Below are positions 3,103 through 28,158 of a DNA stretch of 34,462 nt, in pieces. The translations under genes and the position numbers were made by a program. Below the pieces are notes generated by a model. It was not told the DNA's origin. It searched no databases and worked only from the letters and a program-made list of their open reading frames with translations. The stretch's first letter is position 1; each line of letters opens with the position of its first letter. Source of the DNA: an uncultured Clostridia bacterium (lineage in GTDB: Bacteria > Bacillota > Clostridia > Saccharofermentanales > Saccharofermentanaceae); NCBI GenBank assembly GCA_947304405.1, contig CAMZBB010000019.1:1-34462 (forward strand). The letters run 5' to 3'.

Positions 3103-4447
3103 GTTCAGAAAAAACCGTTACGGTGCTTCTTCGGTCTTTTTGGGCATCATATTGTCGGCCGTGATCCTTGTTGAATGCACGTTTTTGAGATTCGTATGGG
3201 AGCTCGATTACATTACCAAGGTCAATAATGCGGTGGAAACACAGGTAGAAAGCATTCTGTGCGAATATAACAGGCAGCTTTTCGACGTTTACGGCGTATA
3301 TGCCTTTACGATCGATGTGGTCGATGATGACGTTTACCGGAAAGCTCTCCTGGCCTGCGGCTATTCCGAAGGCCCCGTGCTTGATATAGGCGGATACCGT
3401 TCGATCGACAGAAAAGCCCTGCGTGACGCGATAAACATGTATTACTCGTACAGAGGAAGCGGGATAACGATCAACAGGATAGCCGATTTCTTCTCGGAGA
3501 TGATAGATGAGCTTGTCAACAACAATGTCCTGAAGATGATCAAGGAATATACTTCGAGCCCTGCGGCAGGATATGTAAGCGACATCATAAAGGGATCTGA
3601 GAAGCTCAGCAGCTGGATCGAGAAGGCGGGAAGCGTTATAGATATTGAAGATGTCGAATCGTACCTGAAGTTTTTTGAATCTCTTAAGAAAGACTGCAAT
3701 GATGATAACGATCTTAAGGAGTTTTCCATCGATATCCGAATAGACAACATGAAGCCTGCAATAGAATTCATAGACAGGATGATGCAGCTTCATGAATCTG
3801 TAGGCAAAACGGAAAATAAGCTCTTATCGCATATCAATACGGCAAATTATCTGTCTTTCAACTTCGACTGTTATCTGAAGCAGGATATCGATTCGACGAT
3901 AAACGGGACTTGTTTTTCCGACATACACAAGAAGAACAAATGCGATACCGAATATATCCTGACCGGCGATACTGATAACAAGGCCAATGTAGGTGTTACT
4001 TTTCTTCTGATGGCGGTCCTGTCGTGCAAGAATTTCCTGACGGATTATCTCAACAAGGACTACAGATCAAAGATCGACGTGATCTCAAAGATACTGTCAG
4101 CCATAATCGCGGCACTTTCGGAAGGAACCGTTCAGATTGATTACAGGATAATAACGGTCATCCTGATCCACTTGATCGCATGCGTCAAATCCATTAAGGA
4201 AATGAAGATTTTGAGGAAGGGTGAACGCATCACCTTGATGAAGTTCAAGAAGAAGAACGTGATCACTGCGGGATATAGGGATTTTCTGTTCTTGTTCATG
4301 CTGGGGGTTCCGGACAGTAAAATGCTCGAAAGAGCTCTTGTGATACTTAAACGTGATTACGGTGACCTTTATACGGGGTTTACGGCTTCGGCCGATGCCG
4401 GATTGAAGAAGATAAAGGTGACCAGAAGCTATGCATTATACGGGTGA
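3086..4447 (+). CDS. DUF5702-like membrane protein (Tad pilus-associated type)
   Basis: A protein of 453 residues. After a strongly basic head (MRRRNKFRKNRYG) comes a hydrophobic segment (about residues 15-35), then a segment ending in EYNRQLFDVYGVYAF that is typical of DUF5702 proteins found in Clostridia Tad loci. The C-terminal part (TAGYRDFLFLFMLGVPDSK, then ERALVILKRDY) also fits the family pattern of a YxDYLRLLLLL...LRALDLI block. A middle region (about residues 290-365) has further hydrophobic stretches. DUF5702 has no established biochemical role; in many genomes it lies beside TadE/TadG-like pseudopilins. It overlaps the upstream gene by 17 bases and abuts the next one. No Tad ATPase (CpaF/TadA) or TadB/TadC is in the window. 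Confidence 0.75.
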   Translation: MRRRNKFRKNRYGASSVFLGIILSAVILVECTFLRFVWELDYITKVNNAVETQVESILCEYNRQLFDVYGVYAFTIDVVDDDVYRKALLACGYSEGPVLDIGGYRSIDRKALRDAINMYYSYRGSGITINRIADFFSEMIDELVNNNVLKMIKEYTSSPAAGYVSDIIKGSEKLSSWIEKAGSVIDIEDVESYLKFFESLKKDCNDDNDLKEFSIDIRIDNMKPAIEFIDRMMQLHESVGKTENKLLSHINTANYLSFNFDCYLKQDIDSTINGTCFSDIHKKNKCDTEYILTGDTDNKANVGVTFLLMAVLSCKNFLTDYLNKDYRSKIDVISKILSAIIAALSEGTVQIDYRIITVILIHLIACVKSIKEMKILRKGERITLMKFKKKNVITAGYRDFLFLFMLGVPDSKMLERALVILKRDYGDLYTGFTASADAGLKKIKVTRSYALYG

Positions 4448-4452
4448 GACAT

Positions 4453-5442
4453 ATGAGAAACAAAAAGGGAAGTGTTACGATCGAATCGGCTATCTGCTTT
4501 ACGCTTGTGGTTATCCTGATCGCCTGCATAGTAAGTGCTATAAATCTTTACAGAACGGATATCCTCATGACCAGGTCAGTCAATCAGTGCTGTGAGAACA
4601 TGGCATTGATATATCCGGTCACTGTAACCGCAGGAGATGCTGCGTCTGTCCTTTTGAATGCCTTCCCGGACACCGGAATAGAAGGGACCAAGGCATCTTC
4701 AGTTATCGGGACCGTTGCCAAGGCGGTGGGCGGGATCAACTCGATAACGGGATTTAAGATTGAAGAATCTGTTCTTGAGAAACTGTTAGCGGGAACGATG
4801 GCCAAAAACATAAAAGAATGCTACAAACAGCGTAACGGAGGCTCATTGTTCTTTTGTCCGGATGATATCGACGTGAGATTCGACATCAGCAGCAAAAGGC
4901 ACATTATCGAAGTCACTGTTGAATATTCAGTGGCAACGATAGCCGGAAGAAAGCATAAGCAGGTGTTCTCGATAATCCCGCTTTATGGTGACGGATCTTT
5001 GATCTTGGAGGGCGATGAACCAAAAAACGGCTCAAAGGACATATGGGGACTTGATAATTTCAGCAGAGGCGAAGCGTTCAGGGATATATTTAATGCGAAT
5101 CTGCCGAAGATTTTCCCGGTTATCGACAATTATTCCGATGGTGACGTAATGTCGCTCAAGACCATTGATCTTACGGCTCCGTACTATAAGTCCGACAAGA
5201 AGATCGAAAGAACGGTCAAGTCAGACATAGACGAACTCGCTGCTTTCAAAGGGGCGGAGAAGACGATAAACGGTAAGGATTATAAGGTTTCCGGAATATC
5301 GGGCAGGACTTTGACGGTCGTGATCCCGGGTAATTCTCCCAAAGACAGGAAAAATGTAATATCATCTCTAAAAGAATATGCCCGTTCCAAAGGCGTAAAG
5401 CTCGTGATAGAAGAATACGGAAAGTCGTCAAAGTACACATAA
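4453..5442 (+). CDS. TadE-like pseudopilin family protein
   Basis: A protein of 329 residues beginning MRNKKGSVTIESAI, with a basic head, a Gly-Ser-x-Thr-x-Glu motif and then a long hydrophobic segment (VVILIACIVSAI). This is the class III/TadE-type signal seen in Tad pseudopilins, where a prepilin peptidase may cut before the hydrophobic part. The remainder is an extracellular-type domain with no obvious catalytic motif; the last 60 residues look like a small alpha/beta fold. An in-frame GTG at 4444 exists, but ATG 4453 is preferred because GGGTGAG (4443-4449 region) is placed as its ribosome binding site. It is the third gene of the 2794-5442 cluster and is followed by a weak hairpin at 5443. 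Confidence 0.75.
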   Translation: MRNKKGSVTIESAICFTLVVILIACIVSAINLYRTDILMTRSVNQCCENMALIYPVTVTAGDAASVLLNAFPDTGIEGTKASSVIGTVAKAVGGINSITGFKIEESVLEKLLAGTMAKNIKECYKQRNGGSLFFCPDDIDVRFDISSKRHIIEVTVEYSVATIAGRKHKQVFSIIPLYGDGSLILEGDEPKNGSKDIWGLDNFSRGEAFRDIFNANLPKIFPVIDNYSDGDVMSLKTIDLTAPYYKSDKKIERTVKSDIDELAAFKGAEKTINGKDYKVSGISGRTLTVVIPGNSPKDRKNVISSLKEYARSKGVKLVIEEYGKSSKYT

Positions 5443-17543: not shown

Positions 17544-19670
17544 ATGGCAAATCAGGCACATGGCCCGGAGGGCATGATATTTGCGAATAAATACCGCATC
17601 GTAAAGCTCATAGGCAGCGGCGGTATGGCAAATGTTTATCTCGGTATAGACATGAATACCGGTTTGAACGTGGCGATCAAGATACTCAAACCGGAGTTTT
17701 CTTCCGATGAGGAATTTATCCGCCGTTTTGATTCCGAGGCGAAAGCCGTAGCTTCACTCGATCACTCTAATATCGTAAAAGTCTTCGGCGTAGGCCACGA
17801 AGGACAGTTCAGATATATTGTTGAAGAATACGTTGAAGGCATTACGGTAAAGGATCTTATCAATCAGAACGGTCATCTTGACTGGAGAAATGCGGTTCCG
17901 ATCGTAATCCAGATCAGCCTTGCGCTTGATTATGCTCATCAGAAGGGCATCGTTCACCGCGATATCAAGCCTCAGAATATCCTTATCTCACGTGACAAAG
18001 TCTCTAAGATCACCGATTTCGGCATTGCCAGGGCAGCTTCTTCAACAACCATTACAATGACCGGCGGCGTTATCGGATCAGTTCACTATTTCTCGCCGGA
18101 ACAGGCAAGAGGCAGTAAGGTCGGCCCTCAATCGGATATATATTCCATCGGCGTTACCCTTTTCGAGATGGTTACGGGACGCTGTCCTTTTGACGGTGAA
18201 TCGAATGTTTCTATCGCAGTCAAGCATCTGCAGGAGAATCCGCCGCTTGCTTCTTCCATGATGCAGGGAATCCCTATGGGTCTTGATGCCATCATAAACA
18301 AGTGCATGCAGAAGACGCCCGAAAGAAGATATCAGACGATGAGACAGCTCGTTGACGAGCTTGATGCTCTCTTAGTCGATCCTAACGGCGTTTATGGTGT
18401 TATCACGGAAGCACCCGATCACGTTACTCAGTCTGAACCCAACATCTCGTTCAGACAGAATCCCGAATACGACAAGATCTCTGAGATCGAGAAGAGCGCT
18501 GAGGCCATCAGGCTTGCAAGATACAGGGATAACATCCTTCTTGCGCTCATCATTACGGTCATTGCGGGCGTTCTGATCGGACTTGGCATCCTGGTAATCA
18601 AATCCGTGCACAATGCAACGAACATCGAGCAAAATCTCGATTATACCGTTAAGAATTATGTCGGCATGAAGGTCGATGAAGTAATCAAGGAACTTGATAC
18701 CAACAAGATCTATTACCAGATCGAATACGAAAAGAGCGAGGAGTACCAGCCCGGTCTCGTTATAGCGCAGAGCATCAGCGAAGGCGTCGTAATTACTTCG
18801 GGAAGTACATTAAGCAAGCTCATAATCACGGTCTCATCATCTGACGAGACTATCACGTTAGCCGATTATTCAGGCGTGGACTATAAGAATGTTTATACGT
18901 CGCTTACCGCTCTGGATCTTGAGGTATCTTTAAGATCCGAGCCTTCCGATACGGTTAAGCCGGGCATGGTAATCAAGACAGAGCCTGCGGCCGGCACGAC
19001 GGTTCCGAGAAAGTCTGCCGTCGTTATCATTTACGCTACCGAGCCTACGAGCAGCGTTGTTCCTGACGTTGTAGGAAAGAGTGTCAAGGAAGCAAAAGAA
19101 GACCTCGAGAAGAATAATCTTACATTTACGCTTGAAGGTTCCGCGGAAGTCTTAAACCTCAAGGAAACACAGCAGATCGTCCTGCTTACGGATCCTATAC
19201 CCGGAACTTCTGTTGCAAGGAAATCATCCGTCAAGCTTTACATCGGTACGGCTGAAGATTATAAGAACGGCGGTACTCCGACTCCTACGCCTCCGCAGAT
19301 CGTCGTAACGGTTACGGCAAAGGGCAGTGGTACTGTTACCGGAGGCGGCTCGTACAGCGAGGGTACGCAGGTTACTCTCACGGCAACACCTGCTTCGGGA
19401 TTCCAGTTTGATTCCTGGGTAGATGCCGATGGCGAAGTGGTATCCAACACAAGCAATTACACATTCGTAGTGGGAAGCTCCAACGTATCGTTTACGGCTG
19501 TGTTCAAGGCGGCTCCGACTTCCACGCCGATCCCGACACCGGAACCCACGCCTACGCCTGTTCCGACACCTGAACCGACGCCTACGCCGGTTCCCACTCC
19601 TGAGCCGACACCTGTACCGCCTCCGCCGGCTGATCCCGAACCGGGTGAGGGTGACAATGGCGGAAACTGA
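17544..19670 (+). CDS. prkC: PASTA-domain Ser/Thr protein kinase with InlB-type B-repeat and Pro/Thr-rich tail
   Basis: A membrane kinase of 708 residues. Residues 17-275 form a Hanks-type kinase: Gly loop GSGGMA (24-29), Lys 46, HRD 138-140, DFG 158-160, and an activation loop rich in Thr. A transmembrane helix (330-353) leads to three extracellular PASTA domains (about 367-431, 437-498, 504-569) that sense muropeptides or lipid II. Beyond these, where most PrkC/StkP proteins end, lies a divergent InlB B-repeat (about 585-656, with GSGTVTGGGSYSEGTQVTLT and FDSWVDADG) and a tail of PTPEPTPTPV repeats (662-695) that likely passes through the wall. The kinase is paired with prpC and precedes rsgA. 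It regulates wall growth, division or spore germination in relatives. Confidence 0.95.
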   Translation: MANQAHGPEGMIFANKYRIVKLIGSGGMANVYLGIDMNTGLNVAIKILKPEFSSDEEFIRRFDSEAKAVASLDHSNIVKVFGVGHEGQFRYIVEEYVEGITVKDLINQNGHLDWRNAVPIVIQISLALDYAHQKGIVHRDIKPQNILISRDKVSKITDFGIARAASSTTITMTGGVIGSVHYFSPEQARGSKVGPQSDIYSIGVTLFEMVTGRCPFDGESNVSIAVKHLQENPPLASSMMQGIPMGLDAIINKCMQKTPERRYQTMRQLVDELDALLVDPNGVYGVITEAPDHVTQSEPNISFRQNPEYDKISEIEKSAEAIRLARYRDNILLALIITVIAGVLIGLGILVIKSVHNATNIEQNLDYTVKNYVGMKVDEVIKELDTNKIYYQIEYEKSEEYQPGLVIAQSISEGVVITSGSTLSKLIITVSSSDETITLADYSGVDYKNVYTSLTALDLEVSLRSEPSDTVKPGMVIKTEPAAGTTVPRKSAVVIIYATEPTSSVVPDVVGKSVKEAKEDLEKNNLTFTLEGSAEVLNLKETQQIVLLTDPIPGTSVARKSSVKLYIGTAEDYKNGGTPTPTPPQIVVTVTAKGSGTVTGGGSYSEGTQVTLTATPASGFQFDSWVDADGEVVSNTSNYTFVVGSSNVSFTAVFKAAPTSTPIPTPEPTPTPVPTPEPTPTPVPTPEPTPVPPPPADPEPGEGDNGGN
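19533..19622 (+). repeat. Tandem repeat coding the Pro/Thr/Glu tail of the kinase
   Basis: A 30-base unit coding PTPEPTPTPV is present at 19533-19562 and 19563-19592, followed by a degenerate third unit (PTPEPTPVPP) up to about 19622. The copies differ at synonymous positions, so they are old rather than freshly copied. The antisense strand gives a long open frame of Gly/Val dipeptides that is an artefact of this repeat. Confidence 0.85.
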
Positions 19671-22048: not shown

Positions 22049-23011
22049 ATGATTATGAGTTACGAAGAGTTCCAGGAGCGTGTGATGAACGAGTTCATCG
22101 ATTATCTACCGGAGAGATACTCGGATTGCATGCTTGAACTTAACCAGGTGCCTAAGCTTAATGAATTGCTGACGGGCATCTCGATCAAACCGAAGAAACC
22201 TTGTAAGGCTTTCATCGCGCCAACGTTTTATATGGAAAGGCTTTACGAACAGTATGAGGAATCGGGTTCGTTCGAGAAGACCATGGCTGATCAGGCAATC
22301 TACCTGGAAGAATCCATCAAGTACATACCGAAGAACATCCTGTCGCTTGATTTCTCGAAAATGAAGCAGAAGATCGTTTTCCAGATCGTCAATACAGCCG
22401 AGAACGTAGAGATGATAGCAAGATGTCCGCACAGGAGTTTTGAAGATCTCTCAGTTGTTTACAGGGCGATCACCGGGATCAGCAAGAACGGAGTGTCGGG
22501 GTTCCTCATAACGAACGATATCGCTTCTGTTGAAGGCCTGACAGAAGATGAACTCTACGATTGCGCATTTGAGAACACAAAGAGGCTTTTCCCTTTCAAA
22601 TGGGAAAGGATCGAGGTCATGATGAGACGTCTGATGAGGAAGTGGGGCGCTGACGAGACAGAGATCAACGAGGCTTTTCCGGGTTATACAAAGACACCTG
22701 AGAAAGAGCGCGTATATGTCGTTACCAACCGTCATGACTTTTTCGGGGCGAATGCGCTGCTATATAAAGACGTGATCGCCGAAATAGCCGAGAAGATCGG
22801 GACTGACTGCTATATCCTGCCTTCTTCAGTGCACGATCTCATAGTCCTTTCGGCTGACAACTATCTCAAGGAGAACAAACTGGCGAACATCGTTAAGACA
22901 ACGAACAAAGAAAGTGTAAGACCTTCAGAGAGATTATCGGACAGCGTCTATATCTTTTCGTTGAGCGATAAGAGCATTTCCAGAGCATCCGTTGAAGAAG
23001 ATGCCTCATAA
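22049..23011 (+). CDS. DUF5688 family protein
   Basis: A protein of 320 residues with no signal peptide or transmembrane helix, so probably cytoplasmic. The pattern (SYEEFQERVMNEFIDYLPE at the N-terminus; VYVVTNRHDFFGANALLY, then IAEKIGTDCYILPSSVHDLIVL near the C-terminus) matches DUF5688, a family common in Lachnospiraceae and relatives and without a known function. The C-terminal half resembles a self-contained alpha/beta unit in which the protein is read as a ready-made bacterial product of unknown role. The start ATG 22049 has CAGGAGGA seven bases upstream. Only 14 bases separate it from the giant surface protein, so the two probably share a transcript; this is the only functional hint. 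Confidence 0.85.
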   Translation: MIMSYEEFQERVMNEFIDYLPERYSDCMLELNQVPKLNELLTGISIKPKKPCKAFIAPTFYMERLYEQYEESGSFEKTMADQAIYLEESIKYIPKNILSLDFSKMKQKIVFQIVNTAENVEMIARCPHRSFEDLSVVYRAITGISKNGVSGFLITNDIASVEGLTEDELYDCAFENTKRLFPFKWERIEVMMRRLMRKWGADETEINEAFPGYTKTPEKERVYVVTNRHDFFGANALLYKDVIAEIAEKIGTDCYILPSSVHDLIVLSADNYLKENKLANIVKTTNKESVRPSERLSDSVYIFSLSDKSISRASVEEDAS

Positions 23012-23025
23012 ACGGAGGCATGCTT

Positions 23026-26000
23026 ATGAAAAAGAAAAAGAAATTACTCCGGATAATTCTGGCGGTGCTGATCGCTTTAAATCAGATGATCTTCTATCTT
23101 CCTTTGAATGCGGATGAGACAGAGACTGCTGACGCTTCTGAATCTGAGACGGTTGCGGAATCTGAAAGCAGTAGTGTCTCAGACAGCACAAATGAGACTA
23201 CGCAAGAGCAGGAAAGTAAGCCCGCTGAGGTTATAAAGCCTGTCAAAAACGGAAAGGAATTCGTAAAAGGAGTATCGAGGCTTTCGCGTAAATACAGGAT
23301 CGCGGCATCTTCCAAGAAAGGCATGCCCAAGATCTCAGGTGCCGAAGGCGTAGATTACGGAGGATCTTGTGTTCTGTCATTCAAGAATAAGAGTGATTAC
23401 GATTCCGCGATAAAAGAACTCAAGAAAAAGAAGATAGGTTACAGCGTTGACGGTGATTTCTCGCTTTGCGGAGATCAGTGCAAAGCATCTTTTGACGTAA
23501 AGATAAATCCACATGCCAAAACAAAGATTGCGGTAATCGATACCGGATCAGAATTAGCAAATGAGAAGATATCTTTGCTGGGTGATGACGGAAAAGACGT
23601 AAACGGCCACGGTACATCGATGTCCGGCCTTATCTTAAGTCAGACTGATGATGCATACATAATCTCTATCAAGGCGATCGGTGATAACGGGAAGGGAAGT
23701 CTTTCTGACGTTTATGCAGCTGTCAGATATGCTATCGACAAAGAAGTCGATTATATTCTGATGGCGATCTCGATCAAGGATAACGGAAACTATGATGAAT
23801 TCGTTTCTCTTGTGGATGAAGGCATCAATAAGGGGATCAGGATAATCGCATCTGCCGGTAATAACAATAAAGACGCTTCCGGTTATCTCCCTGCCGGGAT
23901 CAAGGGAGTCATAACGGCGGGAGCCGTTGATGAAGACGGATATAAGTTTGAATCATCAAATTACGGCAAGTGCGTTGATTATTATATCCCTGCAGATTCA
24001 ACGTCAGAGGCTGCAGCAATTTTATCAGGGCTGATGATCGATGGCAGGGAATCAGGATGCTTAAAGGAATACAAACCGGATGACGAAGAAGACGAAGAGA
24101 ATAAAGAAGGCGAAGAAGAGGAAGATCCTGACGAAGATGAAGGAGACGATGAGTTTACGATAAACAAATCAAAGATGACGTGGCCGACCAAAAAAGAGTT
24201 GAAAGCAGTAGGCTATACCAATTCGGAAGCGTTCGGAAATGCTGTCATCAAGGCATGCAAGGCTATGAAAGGAGTCGATTACGGTACGGGAAACGGCCAG
24301 GCCGACTGCATGAGATATGTTAATCTTGCGTATGCCCAGGCATTAAAGCTTATCTCAGGACTTAAAGTAACGGACGGAAAGATACCCGGCCTAAAAAGGT
24401 CGAACGGCAACGTCACATATAAAGGAACGAGTCTTACGAATTCCAAATACCATCTGGTTGACGGATGCACTACATGGTCTGAAAAATCACCGCATAAGAT
24501 CGGACATCCCGGCGGTATCAATATCAAGGCTAACGGCGGGCTTAAAGCCTCTATCAAGAAGTTGGGCGCGAAAAAGGGAAGCATATTGCTGTTTGGCGGA
24601 AAGAAGGACGGTGAATTCCGCTGGACGCACGCTGCGATCTACGCAGGAACCGGCAAGAAAGTTTATGATGCTCCTGGCGGCAGCATGACCGCAGGTGTTC
24701 CTTATTCAAAGTCTGAAAGCGGATCCGGAAGCAAGACATATACGCATGTGGCCGCGCTCAATTACGCTACATTCAAGGAGAATCCTAAGGTGTCGGTGAC
24801 GAAAGCGTCTACGATGCCCGGAATGACGGGCGATAACGCATGTTATTCGTTAAAGGATACCAAGTACGGACTTTATAATGCTTCCGGGTCGCTTTTGCAT
24901 GAGTTTGTACTTGATGAATCAGGCAAGACAGATACTTATGAGATCAAGGATACAAACCTGAAATATTATGTTCAGGAGATAACGGCCGGCCGCGGATATG
25001 TGGTAAATGAGAAGAAATATAACGTAAACCTCACTTCGGCTGCATCAAATGGAGTGATCACCATAAAAGTCAGTGACGAGCCTGTCTCATCCGAAGGAGT
25101 CCTTCAGATAGAGAAGAAGGATCCGGAAAGTTGGAACGTAATAACCGGGATCAAGCTTTCTGATGCGGTTTTCCGCGTGGATTACTATGACTCGATTAGT
25201 ATCGACAGCTATAAAGATCTGGAATCTGCCGATGGTGAGACTACATACAAGATCAAGGCTACTGCGGATATTACAGGAAAGACTGCAGATGACGGTTCGG
25301 CGCGTTTTGAAATAAGTCCGATGACTTTATCCGATTCTGCAGATGAAGGGTATTTCTCTAACCTGAAAGGCCTTACAAAACTGCCTTTGGGGACTTATGT
25401 GATAACGGAAATCAAAGCACCTGAAGGATATAAGGTCGCTGATCCTTCCAAGCCTCTCATAATGAAGATACATCAGGAGGGAAACAGCGCGGTGGCATAC
25501 TATTCTGCTGATCCTTCCATATATCAGGTGTTAGAAGACAAGATAGTCATTAAAGAAGATTCGGTAAAAGGCAAAGGCTCATTCAGGAAAAAGATAAATG
25601 TAAATGAAGGAGATGACATAGATAAGACCCTCTATAACGCTGAAGGCACGACTTACAACGTTTATCACAAAATAAGCAAAAATCTTGCTTTAAGCATCAT
25701 TTTCGGGAAAGACGGAAAGATATCGGAAGTAAAGTATGCGGAAGGAGTAAAGCCTGAAGGTGACAATGGCGGGAACGAAAGCCTCGTCCTTCCCGTAGGC
25801 GAATATTATGCCAAAGAGATACACTCGGGATACGGGCTTTATCTGGATGCTTCTGAAGTGCCTTTTGAAATAACAGAGAACAACGTATCGGAGATGGAGT
25901 TTTCGGACGAGCCGGTCTTCGCTCGTTTTGACTGCCTGATCAAGAAGGTCAGGAGTAATGACGTATCAGATGATGTTACGGAACTTGTTCCTGTCGAAGG

Positions 26001-28158
26001 AGCGGAATTCAGCATCTTATACTTTGCTGATTTCATTGAAGATGAAAGCTATAAGGAAAAGAATCCTTCCAGATCATGGCTTTTCAAGACCGATCGTGAC
26101 GGCAAGCTTTTCTATGATGAAGAACATTTCGTGAGCGGCAGCAGCCTTTTCAAGAATAAGGACGGAGAATTCGTTGTTCCTCAGGGCACTTATGTGATAA
26201 GTGAGACAAAGGCACCAATGGGGACATCGGCAAGCAAAGAAGTCAGGGTAATAGTCATCCGTTTTGCAAGAGACATAATCAAAGGTTCTGATAACGATCC
26301 TGCAAGGTCGGAAGCATCAAGAAGCACGTTGTTCTCCAACACGGTATCTGAGATCAAAGACGGAATTATCGAGTACTATAACGACTTTGAGTCATCGATA
26401 TCAACGCTTGCTTTGAGTACTGCGAACGGTTCTAAGCATATCGCGGCTGAGACCGGAGTCAGCATAACGGATACTCTCACTTATAAGAATCTTTTGCCCG
26501 GATACCAGTATAAGATCAGGGCCTGGCTTGTAAGATCCGATGGAACCGAAGTGGTCAAGCCTTTTGATACGGTGCTTAAGATCAACACGGAAGAAGAAAG
26601 AAACGGACAGGTAAGCATCCCTTTTGTGATCGATGCCTCTGTTCTTCAGGGCGAAACGCTTACAGTAATGGAAGAAATCTATATCATCGACAAAACGGAG
26701 AAAGAGCTTCTGTACCTGAAGCATGATGACATAAACAACGAAGACCAGCAGGTATATATCCCTCTGGTAAAGACTGAATTCATCGATGAGAAAGTTGACG
26801 GTTTTGATGATGACGAAAAGCTTAAACTTACTTCATACGGCAAAGACGTAAAGCTTACGGATTATGTTTCTTATAAGAATCTGATAGTCGGGAAGAAGTA
26901 TAAGCTGTCAGGAACGATACTGGTAAAGGATACGGGCAAAGCCCTCCTGAATTCTAAAGGAAGACAGTATACTGCGACAGTTGAGTTTGAAGCAGATAAG
27001 AAGGACAGCATTATCAAGGTTGTCTTTGAACATGTGGATCTGACGGAGTTTACTGGTCCTATCGTATGTGTCGAAAAGCTCTCAGCTGATGGCATAGATC
27101 TTGTAACTCACAATGATCTTGATGATAAAGATCAGACATTGACCGTGCCGGGAATAAAAACTTCTGCTGCTGATAATACGAATAAGACAAAGACGCTGAC
27201 TTACACTGAGACAGTGGATATCAAAGATAAAGTCTCATATACAGGCCTCAAAAAGGGAAAGACTTACCAGGTAACGGGAATCCTGATGGATAAGGAAACA
27301 GGCAAGGTCTATACGGATAAAGACGGCGGTCAGTATGTTAAAACGGTCGAATTTGTTCCGGAGGATTCCGACGGCGTGGTGGAGGTGCTTTTCGAGAAGG
27401 TTAAGATCACATATGAATACAAAGAGATCGTCGTCTTTGAGAAACTTTTTGAAGCAAAGAACAAAGTCGTTTTGGCAGTCCACGAGGACATCAACGATAA
27501 GGATCAGACGGTCTACAGGCCTTTTGCATCAACGGTCGCGAGCAGTTCTTCGGGATCAAAGAACATAACCGGGACCAAAGGCAATGTGAAGATCACGGAT
27601 AAAGTGATGTATAAAGGCTTTACGCCCGGCAATACTTATAAGACGGTCGCAACGCTCTACAAAAAAGACGGTACGCAGCTTATGAATAACGGGACACCTG
27701 TAACGAACAGTATATCGTTCACGCCTTCGAATAGAGACGGGACCATTGAGGTGCCTCTTACATTTAATCTCGAAATGATAAGTTACGGAGAATCAGTAGT
27801 CATATTTGAGAATATCTATGATCTTGCGACTGATGAAGAAGTAAAGTCAGGCACGCAAAAAGAAGATATAGAGATCGTCAGACATCACGATCTGAACAAT
27901 AAAGAGCAGACGCTTAAATACAAAAATCCCGTAATACCAAAAACAGGGGAAGGTACTTCTCCTGCAATGGTAATTGGTTTGTTGCTGCTGTGTGCTTCAG
28001 CCGGACCTATGGCATTTGCGATCAGAGCGAAGCGCGGTGCGAAAGGCCAAGCTCGTCGGCAATCGCGAAGAAAGCCTGACGTGAATTCCTTATGGTGCTC
28101 TCTGAAACGCAAAAAGCGAGACGGCAGTAGCCGGGTCTGGAGAAACTGGAGCCCTTAA
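23026..28158 (+). CDS. Giant wall-anchored surface protein: subtilase, NlpC/P60-like, SpaA and VaFE domains
   Basis: About 1710 residues from ATG 23026 (CGGAGG seven bases ahead; ATG 23020 is too close). Parts in order: signal peptide (MKKKKKLLRIILAVL to LNA), Ser/Glu-rich linker (29-66), subtilisin-like domain (about 163-343) with Asp 172 (IDTG), His 195 (NGHGTS), oxyanion Asn 279 (ASAGN) and Ser 327 (DSTSEA), acidic linker (351-376), NlpC/P60-like domain (about 398-583) with Cys 428 (ADCMRYV) and His 535 (THAAIYAG), several SpaA/prealbumin-like domains (about 605-1113; VITEIKAPEGY, VISETKAPMG), four VaFE repeats (1129-1631), sorting signal IPKTG (1637-1641), hydrophobic stretch and basic tail. 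A sortase would link it to peptidoglycan; none is encoded here. The last 40 or so residues run antisense through the end of the aminotransferase gene and look unnatural. Confidence 0.9.
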   Translation: MKKKKKLLRIILAVLIALNQMIFYLPLNADETETADASESETVAESESSSVSDSTNETTQEQESKPAEVIKPVKNGKEFVKGVSRLSRKYRIAASSKKGMPKISGAEGVDYGGSCVLSFKNKSDYDSAIKELKKKKIGYSVDGDFSLCGDQCKASFDVKINPHAKTKIAVIDTGSELANEKISLLGDDGKDVNGHGTSMSGLILSQTDDAYIISIKAIGDNGKGSLSDVYAAVRYAIDKEVDYILMAISIKDNGNYDEFVSLVDEGINKGIRIIASAGNNNKDASGYLPAGIKGVITAGAVDEDGYKFESSNYGKCVDYYIPADSTSEAAAILSGLMIDGRESGCLKEYKPDDEEDEENKEGEEEEDPDEDEGDDEFTINKSKMTWPTKKELKAVGYTNSEAFGNAVIKACKAMKGVDYGTGNGQADCMRYVNLAYAQALKLISGLKVTDGKIPGLKRSNGNVTYKGTSLTNSKYHLVDGCTTWSEKSPHKIGHPGGINIKANGGLKASIKKLGAKKGSILLFGGKKDGEFRWTHAAIYAGTGKKVYDAPGGSMTAGVPYSKSESGSGSKTYTHVAALNYATFKENPKVSVTKASTMPGMTGDNACYSLKDTKYGLYNASGSLLHEFVLDESGKTDTYEIKDTNLKYYVQEITAGRGYVVNEKKYNVNLTSAASNGVITIKVSDEPVSSEGVLQIEKKDPESWNVITGIKLSDAVFRVDYYDSISIDSYKDLESADGETTYKIKATADITGKTADDGSARFEISPMTLSDSADEGYFSNLKGLTKLPLGTYVITEIKAPEGYKVADPSKPLIMKIHQEGNSAVAYYSADPSIYQVLEDKIVIKEDSVKGKGSFRKKINVNEGDDIDKTLYNAEGTTYNVYHKISKNLALSIIFGKDGKISEVKYAEGVKPEGDNGGNESLVLPVGEYYAKEIHSGYGLYLDASEVPFEITENNVSEMEFSDEPVFARFDCLIKKVRSNDVSDDVTELVPVEGAEFSILYFADFIEDESYKEKNPSRSWLFKTDRDGKLFYDEEHFVSGSSLFKNKDGEFVVPQGTYVISETKAPMGTSASKEVRVIVIRFARDIIKGSDNDPARSEASRSTLFSNTVSEIKDGIIEYYNDFESSISTLALSTANGSKHIAAETGVSITDTLTYKNLLPGYQYKIRAWLVRSDGTEVVKPFDTVLKINTEEERNGQVSIPFVIDASVLQGETLTVMEEIYIIDKTEKELLYLKHDDINNEDQQVYIPLVKTEFIDEKVDGFDDDEKLKLTSYGKDVKLTDYVSYKNLIVGKKYKLSGTILVKDTGKALLNSKGRQYTATVEFEADKKDSIIKVVFEHVDLTEFTGPIVCVEKLSADGIDLVTHNDLDDKDQTLTVPGIKTSAADNTNKTKTLTYTETVDIKDKVSYTGLKKGKTYQVTGILMDKETGKVYTDKDGGQYVKTVEFVPEDSDGVVEVLFEKVKITYEYKEIVVFEKLFEAKNKVVLAVHEDINDKDQTVYRPFASTVASSSSGSKNITGTKGNVKITDKVMYKGFTPGNTYKTVATLYKKDGTQLMNNGTPVTNSISFTPSNRDGTIEVPLTFNLEMISYGESVVIFENIYDLATDEEVKSGTQKEDIEIVRHHDLNNKEQTLKYKNPVIPKTGEGTSPAMVIGLLLLCASAGPMAFAIRAKRGAKGQARRQSRRKPDVNSLWCSLKRKKRDGSSRVWRNWSP
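26410..27918 (+). repeat. Four tandem VaFE-type repeats within the surface protein
   Basis: Protein-level repeats at about 26410-26763, 26803-27153, 27181-27525 and 27556-27918. Each opens with a (V)xITDxxxYKxLxxGxxY pattern and closes with a V(V/C)xE block and an HxDxNNxxQ motif (KHDDINNEDQ, THNDLDDKDQ, VHEDINDKDQ, RHHDLNNKEQ). DNA identity between copies is low, so they are long diverged. In related proteins such domains form intramolecular isopeptide bonds and act as a stalk. Confidence 0.85.

What the first reader, a model, noticed from the sequence alone, without database searches (positions are those of the whole stretch)
23026..28158. Sortase-anchored protein that joins two different peptidase domains to a SpaA/VaFE stalk
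Seen: signal peptide, a subtilisin-like domain with Asp 172, His 195 and Ser 327, an NlpC/P60-like domain with Cys 428 and His 535, SpaA-like domains with E-x-K-A-P isopeptide motifs, four VaFE repeats and IPKTG. Known: VaFE/SpaA stalks usually carry an adhesin or thioester head. Inference: here the head appears to be a protease plus a wall hydrolase or amidase, suggesting a surface-displayed processing or toxin-like machine, possibly one that releases or matures itself.
Basis: partly seen in the sequence, partly recalled or inferred. Interest (0 to 1): 0.6.

Follow-up and report, generated by a model that had tools for sequence, protein, structure and literature searches.

The report
Stalked surface protein with two peptidases
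A rumen bacterium makes a long wall-anchored stalk whose tip carries a subtilisin-type protease and a cell-wall-cutting enzyme side by side, and at the same chromosomal place its relatives swap these tips for others, including a covalent adhesin, so the stalk looks like a platform for exchangeable working heads.

Summary
The gene at 23026-28158 (+) encodes 1710 aa: signal peptide, pro-subtilisin (S8) domain, NlpC/P60 domain, four SpaA domains, four T-Q ester-bond (VaFE) domains, IPKTG anchor. Pfam, a predicted structure (S8 part matches unprocessed pro-subtilisins, Z 25) and 33 homologues with invariant Asp/His/Asn/Ser support the protease. NlpC/P60 is weak on this sequence alone (16 bits, cut-off 23) but solid through relatives, a profile search of solved structures and a predicted fold (Z 9-10); Cys428 and His535 are invariant in 26 sequences. 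The source genus is Saccharofermentans-like rumen bacteria. New here: at one fixed locus (RsgA-Rpe-ThiN-DUF5688-X-aminotransferase) X always has the same kind of stalk, but its head is NlpC alone, S8+NlpC (window clade) or S8+thioester domain. Across 38 S8-headed relatives the second head is NlpC (16), thioester (14) or unknown (8), never both. The 'matures itself' idea gains support for the S8 part only: a prodomain ending in a conserved [LIV]-C-[GSA] motif, a likely self-cleavage site. Release from the stalk and a toxin role are unsupported. Likely a surface-displayed protease plus peptidoglycan hydrolase; targets unknown. A new variant of a known kind.

The parts
23026..28158 (+). whole gene, 1710 aa surface protein
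   Evidence: single open frame; GGAGG 7 nt before ATG 23026
23026..23115 (+). signal peptide (approximate)
   Evidence: sequence: MKKKKKLLRIILAVLIALNQMIFYLPLNAD
23290..23469 (+). pro-subtilisin-like prodomain ending in FSLC|G (aa 145-149)
   Evidence: model matches unautoprocessed pro-subtilisins, Z 25.5 from model residue 31; motif [LIV]C[GSA] in 35 of 36 aligned members
23470..24054 (+). Peptidase S8 (subtilase) catalytic domain
   Evidence: Pfam 2.7e-15; fold; PDB profile search 3e-25
23539..23541 (+). catalytic Asp172
   Evidence: invariant in 34 sequences
23608..23610 (+). catalytic His195
   Evidence: invariant in 34 sequences
23860..23862 (+). oxyanion-hole Asn279
   Evidence: invariant in 34 sequences
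24004..24006 (+). catalytic Ser327
   Evidence: invariant in 34 sequences
24055..24168 (+). acidic, variable linker between the two heads
   Evidence: alignment A1; low pLDDT
24169..24819 (+). NlpC/P60 domain
24307..24309 (+). nucleophile Cys428, at the start of a helix in the model
   Evidence: invariant in 26 sequences; helix 47-58 of the model
24628..24630 (+). His535, on the central strand
   Evidence: invariant in 26 sequences; strand 149-158 of the model
24847..25071 (+). SpaA domain 1
   Evidence: Pfam PF17802
25090..25460 (+). SpaA domain 2 (approximate), E-I-K-A-P at 25408-25422
   Evidence: second SpaA stretch; motif
25654..25911 (+). SpaA domain 3
   Evidence: Pfam 24.4 bits
25990..26259 (+). 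SpaA domain 4, E-T-K-A-P at 26203-26217
   Evidence: Pfam 33.5 bits
26410..26763 (+). T-Q ester-bond (VaFE) domain 1
26803..27150 (+). T-Q ester-bond (VaFE) domain 2
27160..27522 (+). T-Q ester-bond (VaFE) domain 3
27535..27921 (+). T-Q ester-bond (VaFE) domain 4
27934..27948 (+). sortase motif IPKTG, followed by a hydrophobic stretch and a basic tail
   Evidence: motif and tail present in the seven orthologues
22049..23011 (+). DUF5688 gene, likely in the same operon (14 nt before ATG 23026)
   Evidence: Pfam 1e-72; adjacency to TQ-stalk genes across the genus

Best explanation
It is a wall-anchored display protein. Secretion and a sortase fix IPKTG to the wall. Four SpaA and four ester-bonded domains form a stiff stalk that carries two enzymes at the tip: a subtilisin made as a zymogen, and an NlpC/P60 peptidase. 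The S8 domain most likely cuts itself after the conserved [LIV]-Cys (Cys148) and sheds its prodomain. The mature tip then cleaves proteins, and the NlpC/P60 part cleaves peptide bonds of peptidoglycan outside the producing cell (neighbouring cells or shed wall), for food or competition. Shown: domain make-up, folds in predicted models, invariant catalytic residues, and that the head is exchanged at a fixed locus while the stalk type stays. Inferred: enzyme activity, self-cleavage, anchoring in this strain, and targets.
For: Both heads are recognised by fold and by invariant catalytic residues over 34 and 26 sequences. The S8 part aligns with unprocessed pro-subtilisins over prodomain plus catalytic domain (Z 25.5, 253 residues, 3.0 A), and 35 of 36 aligned prodomains end in [LIV]C[GSA]. 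All four T-Q domains keep the His-(8)-Gln pair that matches His572/Gln580 of Cpe0147. The anchor and stalk are conserved in seven orthologues. The NlpC profile finds peptidoglycan hydrolases in the PDB (C. difficile autolysin 5e-10, Spr 1.5e-8, MepS, LytE, CwlO). At the same locus, lineages without S8 keep NlpC as the first domain after the signal peptide, so an NlpC tip on this stalk stands on its own.
Against: No activity was tested. The window's own NlpC score is below Pfam's cut-off, and the usual Ser-Gly after Cys is Met-Arg here. Catalytic distances were not measured. A location beyond the own wall is inferred from stalk length only. The target (neighbour, diet, host or own wall) is not indicated by any sequence feature found; no wall-binding domain was seen. 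No sortase is in this assembly, though it also lacks dnaA and purA, which flank the sortase gene in relatives.
Confidence: 0.45

Rival explanations
1. Own-wall enzyme: the NlpC/P60 head trims the producer's own peptidoglycan (cell separation or wall turnover) and the S8 head processes surface proteins of the same cell.
For: The PDB relatives of the NlpC domain include autolysins and growth-linked endopeptidases. The gene follows PASTA-kinase/phosphatase genes, a wall-sensing pair, in the same order across the genus.
Against: A stalk of eight Ig-like domains and a C-terminal anchor place the heads away from the own wall. Autolysins usually have wall-binding repeats, none seen here. The head is replaced by a thioester adhesin domain in sister lineages, so the function is not essential for division.
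Confidence: 0.2
2. In-cis processing: the S8 domain is mainly a maturation protease for its own chain, unmasking or trimming the head behind it (NlpC or thioester domain).
For: S8 lies directly before the second head in all members, whether that head is NlpC or a thioester domain. A prodomain with a conserved end motif supports self-cleavage.
Against: The linker between S8 and the second head is variable and keeps no conserved cleavage motif. NlpC-only relatives at the same locus do without such a protease.
Confidence: 0.15
3. Adhesin: the NlpC-like domain does not cut peptidoglycan but, like the thioester domain found in its place in relatives, uses its cysteine to bind or acylate a partner.
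For: NlpC and thioester heads are mutually exclusive in the same position of the same stalk (16 versus 14 members).
Against: The domain keeps the Cys/His pair of a hydrolase and lacks the thioester Cys and Gln motifs. All strong fold and profile matches are peptidoglycan hydrolases or amidases.
Confidence: 0.12

Closest known systems
TIE proteins (thioester, isopeptide, ester domain adhesins; eLife 2015 PMC4450167)
   Same: secreted, LPXTG-type anchor, stalk of isopeptide-type and ester-bond domains with the functional head at the N-terminus
   Different: no thioester domain here; the head is S8 plus NlpC/P60. S8 before the thioester domain, as in sister proteins, is not mentioned in the papers searched
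Streptococcal/lactococcal cell-envelope subtilases (C5a peptidase, PrtP; review PMC9082167)
   Same: S8 protease with a prodomain, displayed on the wall by a sortase (own knowledge and abstract)
   Different: compact S8 domain without PA or Fn3 domains in the Pfam scan; followed by a second enzyme and a SpaA/T-Q stalk
NlpC/P60 (C40) peptidoglycan hydrolases such as C. difficile Acd24020, Spr/MepS, LytE, CwlO
   Same: papain-like fold, Cys at the start of a helix, His on the central strand
   Different: larger domain with long insertions, displayed on a stalk, Ser-Gly after Cys not kept
Cpe0147-type T-Q ester-bond stalk domains (PF18202 / VaFE)
   Same: four clear domains with Thr, His and Gln in place
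   Different: nothing notable

Membership tests
Peptidase S8 (subtilases) | subtilisin fold | tested here: met
   Foldseek E 2.9e-13, VIA Z 25.5 to pro-subtilisin E; Pfam 2.7e-15
Peptidase S8 (subtilases) | Asp/His/Ser triad and oxyanion Asn | tested here: met
   D172, H195, N279, S327 invariant in 34 sequences
Peptidase S8 (subtilases) | N-terminal prodomain that is cleaved off | tested here: inconclusive
   prodomain fold aligned and end motif conserved; cleavage itself not testable
NlpC/P60 (C40) | NlpC/P60 papain-like fold | tested here: met
   domain model pLDDT 82.5, pTM 0.82; VIA Z 9-10 to NlpC/P60 hydrolases; Foldseek prob 0.97-0.99 but E only 1e-2
NlpC/P60 (C40) | catalytic Cys and His | tested here: met
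   C428 and H535 invariant in 26 sequences
NlpC/P60 (C40) | third polar residue after the His strand | tested here: inconclusive
   Asp548 in the window, Glu/Gln/His in relatives; geometry not measured
NlpC/P60 (C40) | Pfam score over cut-off | tested here: inconclusive
   window 16.1 bits, cut-off 23; relatives 27.5 and 28.5 bits
NlpC/P60 (C40) | peptidoglycan peptide cleavage | not testable with these tools
   needs an enzyme assay
TIE proteins | thioester domain with [YFL]C and Gln motifs | tested here: not met
   absent in the window protein; present in 14 relatives
TIE proteins | isopeptide and ester-bond stalk | tested here: met
   SpaA x4, TQ x4
T-Q ester-bond domains | Thr nucleophile, His, Gln | tested here: met
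   His-(8)-Gln in all four and a Thr near each start; numbering of Cpe0147 from PMC12679949
Sortase substrates | LPXTG-like motif, hydrophobic stretch, basic tail | tested here: met
   IPKTG at 27934-27948
Sortase substrates | a sortase in the genome | tested here: inconclusive
   none in this MAG, but dnaA and purA, its neighbours in relatives, are missing too; 79 of 82 genus genomes have one
Cell-envelope subtilases (C5a peptidase/PrtP) | PA and Fn3-type domains after S8 | tested here: not met
   no such Pfam match at E<=1

The most novel reading that the evidence does not exclude
A stalk platform with exchangeable heads: a self-maturing subtilisin tip is paired, at one fixed chromosomal locus, with either a covalent thioester adhesin or a peptidoglycan hydrolase. 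The bacteria would thus switch over evolution between gripping a partner and cutting its wall, with the protease preparing the target surface in both cases.
Probability: 0.25. Interest if true: 0.72.

Novelty: new variant of a known kind. Interest (0 to 1): 0.52.

Why it matters
Stalks of this type are known as carriers of adhesins. Here the same kind of stalk carries two enzymes, and relatives at the same locus carry a thioester adhesin behind the same protease. This gives a natural set of head swaps in which to test what the protease adds, and suggests that some 'VaFE repeat surface proteins' of gut bacteria are enzymes rather than adhesins. It also ties DUF5688, a family of unknown function, to these stalk genes.

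Tried and rejected
A first scan of genome contigs with the single window head found no relative; a second one with the alignment found 39 loci. A degenerate, inactive S8 was considered and rejected because Asp, His, Asn and Ser are invariant. A chance match for NlpC was rejected by the 26-sequence alignment and the PDB profile search; phmmer with the single domain gave only chance hits. I first thought that the thioester domains of sister proteins had lost their Gln (TH instead of TQ in the helix motif); PMC4450167 shows that the thioester Gln lies in a later motif, which is present in all 14. Absence of sortase in the genome was traced to a missing stretch of the assembly. Promoter and terminator scans gave nothing that bears on the gene. 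Most hits of the viral-contig scan match the S8 domain only. The literature searches found no description of S8 with a thioester or NlpC head on a T-Q stalk, but most subscription papers are not held.

Full report
Numbering.

What is there. The open frame 23020-28158 has Pfam matches to Peptidase_S8 (2.7e-15), SpaA (four stretches, 2.3e-16) and the T-Q ester-bond domain (four stretches, 2.4e-81), and NCBIfam calls the last one VaFE repeat (8.8e-89). IPKTG, a hydrophobic stretch and a basic tail close the chain.

The protease head. An alignment of the window with 33 relatives keeps Asp172, His195, Asn279 and Ser327 without exception. The AlphaFold2 model of ORF residues 61-690 (pLDDT 81.8) matches unautoprocessed pro-subtilisin E (Z 25.5, 253 residues, 3.0 A) and pro-Tk-subtilisin over prodomain and catalytic domain. 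The prodomain ends in a [LIV]-Cys-[GSA] motif in 35 of 36 aligned members, followed by variable sequence. That is where a prosubtilisin is cut, so I infer self-cleavage after Cys148.

The NlpC/P60 head. The window domain alone is below Pfam's cut-off (16.1 against 23 bits), but 21 of 26 homologous domains match NLPC_P60 and full-length relatives pass it. Cys428 and His535 are invariant in all 26. A profile of the 26 finds NlpC/P60 hydrolases in the PDB (C. difficile autolysin 5e-10, dipeptidyl-peptidase VI 1.5e-9, Spr 1.5e-8). The domain model (pLDDT 82.5, pTM 0.82) puts Cys428 at the start of a helix and His535 on a strand, and matches peptidoglycan hydrolases at Z 9-10 (Foldseek probability 0.98, E only 0.01). 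Distances could not be measured.

The stalk. Each T-Q domain has a Thr near its start and His-(8)-Gln near its end, as His572/Gln580 in Cpe0147 (PMC12679949), so ester bonds are plausible.

Where it comes from. The related records are rumen and other ruminant-gut MAGs and isolates named Saccharofermentans, Ruminococcaceae or Clostridiales. Of 148 relatives searched, 49 have a match to the head, nearly all in the same genus. Five further loci with 35-44% identity are named Eubacterium, Clostridiales or Lachnospiraceae.

Head exchange. Of 38 S8-headed proteins, 16 carry NlpC, 14 carry a thioester domain with both the [YFL]C and the Gln motif, and 8 have other or cut heads; none has both. Pfam names the thioester domain TED_2 in one case over its cut-off (28.0 against 27 bits). 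The gene lies at a conserved place: PP2C, PASTA kinase, RsgA, Rpe, ThiN, DUF5688, X, aminotransferase, EAL. There X is S8+NlpC in the window and seven relatives, S8+thioester in nine genomes, and NlpC without S8 in at least fifteen, plus two with diverged NlpC heads. A tree of four neighbouring genes places the S8+thioester group inside the NlpC-only lineages and the S8+NlpC group apart, so the head changed at least twice. A tree of the S8 domain puts the window's S8 with S8 proteins found elsewhere in the same genomes (support 0.97), which suggests replacement by a paralogue. These trees are quick FastTree runs with some weak nodes.

Surroundings. DUF5688 occurs once in this genome, as does the T-Q gene, and they are neighbours. 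In the genus, 65 of 81 listed T-Q genes have DUF5688 within 15 kb; about 1.8 are expected for random placement. The list is truncated and many cases are orthologous, so the number is descriptive. In NlpC-only lineages a sortase gene lies directly beyond the T-Q gene. This MAG has no sortase, but dnaA and purA, which flank the conserved sortase in relatives, are missing too, so the gap is most likely in the assembly.

Mechanism. The most likely reading is a surface-displayed protease plus peptidoglycan hydrolase acting outside the cell. The anatomy is well supported; activity and targets are inferred.

Known or new. The parts are known families; the combination, and the exchange with thioester heads at one locus, was not found in the papers searched. 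I rate it a new variant of a known kind.

Noticed in passing
22049-23011: DUF5688 gene adjoins the stalk gene; across the genus DUF5688 lies near T-Q stalk genes far more often than expected by random placement (65 of 81 within 15 kb, about 1.8 expected), often with a sortase.
   Followed up: partly
4444-5442: 332-aa protein with a C-terminal CDI toxin EC869-like nuclease domain (PF21111, 2.2e-12), next to a DUF5702 protein.
   Followed up: no
17544-19670: PASTA-domain Ser/Thr kinase with an added Flg_new_2 (divergent InlB B-repeat) domain at its C-terminus (3.6e-20).
   Followed up: no
28022-28158: The surface gene and the convergent aminotransferase gene overlap by 137 nt; the basic C-terminal tail of the surface protein lies in the overlap and is conserved in seven orthologues.
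   Followed up: no
L132:794-6181: A 1796-aa S8+NlpC relative lies on a 467-kb contig of the viral collection (IMGVR_UViG_3300021431_002946); megaphage or misassigned bacterial contig, not resolved.
   Followed up: partly
L048, L049, L050, L051, L052, L069, L070, L071: Eight S8-headed stalk proteins have a second head that is neither NlpC nor thioester and is not named by Pfam; some are cut by contig ends.
   Followed up: no
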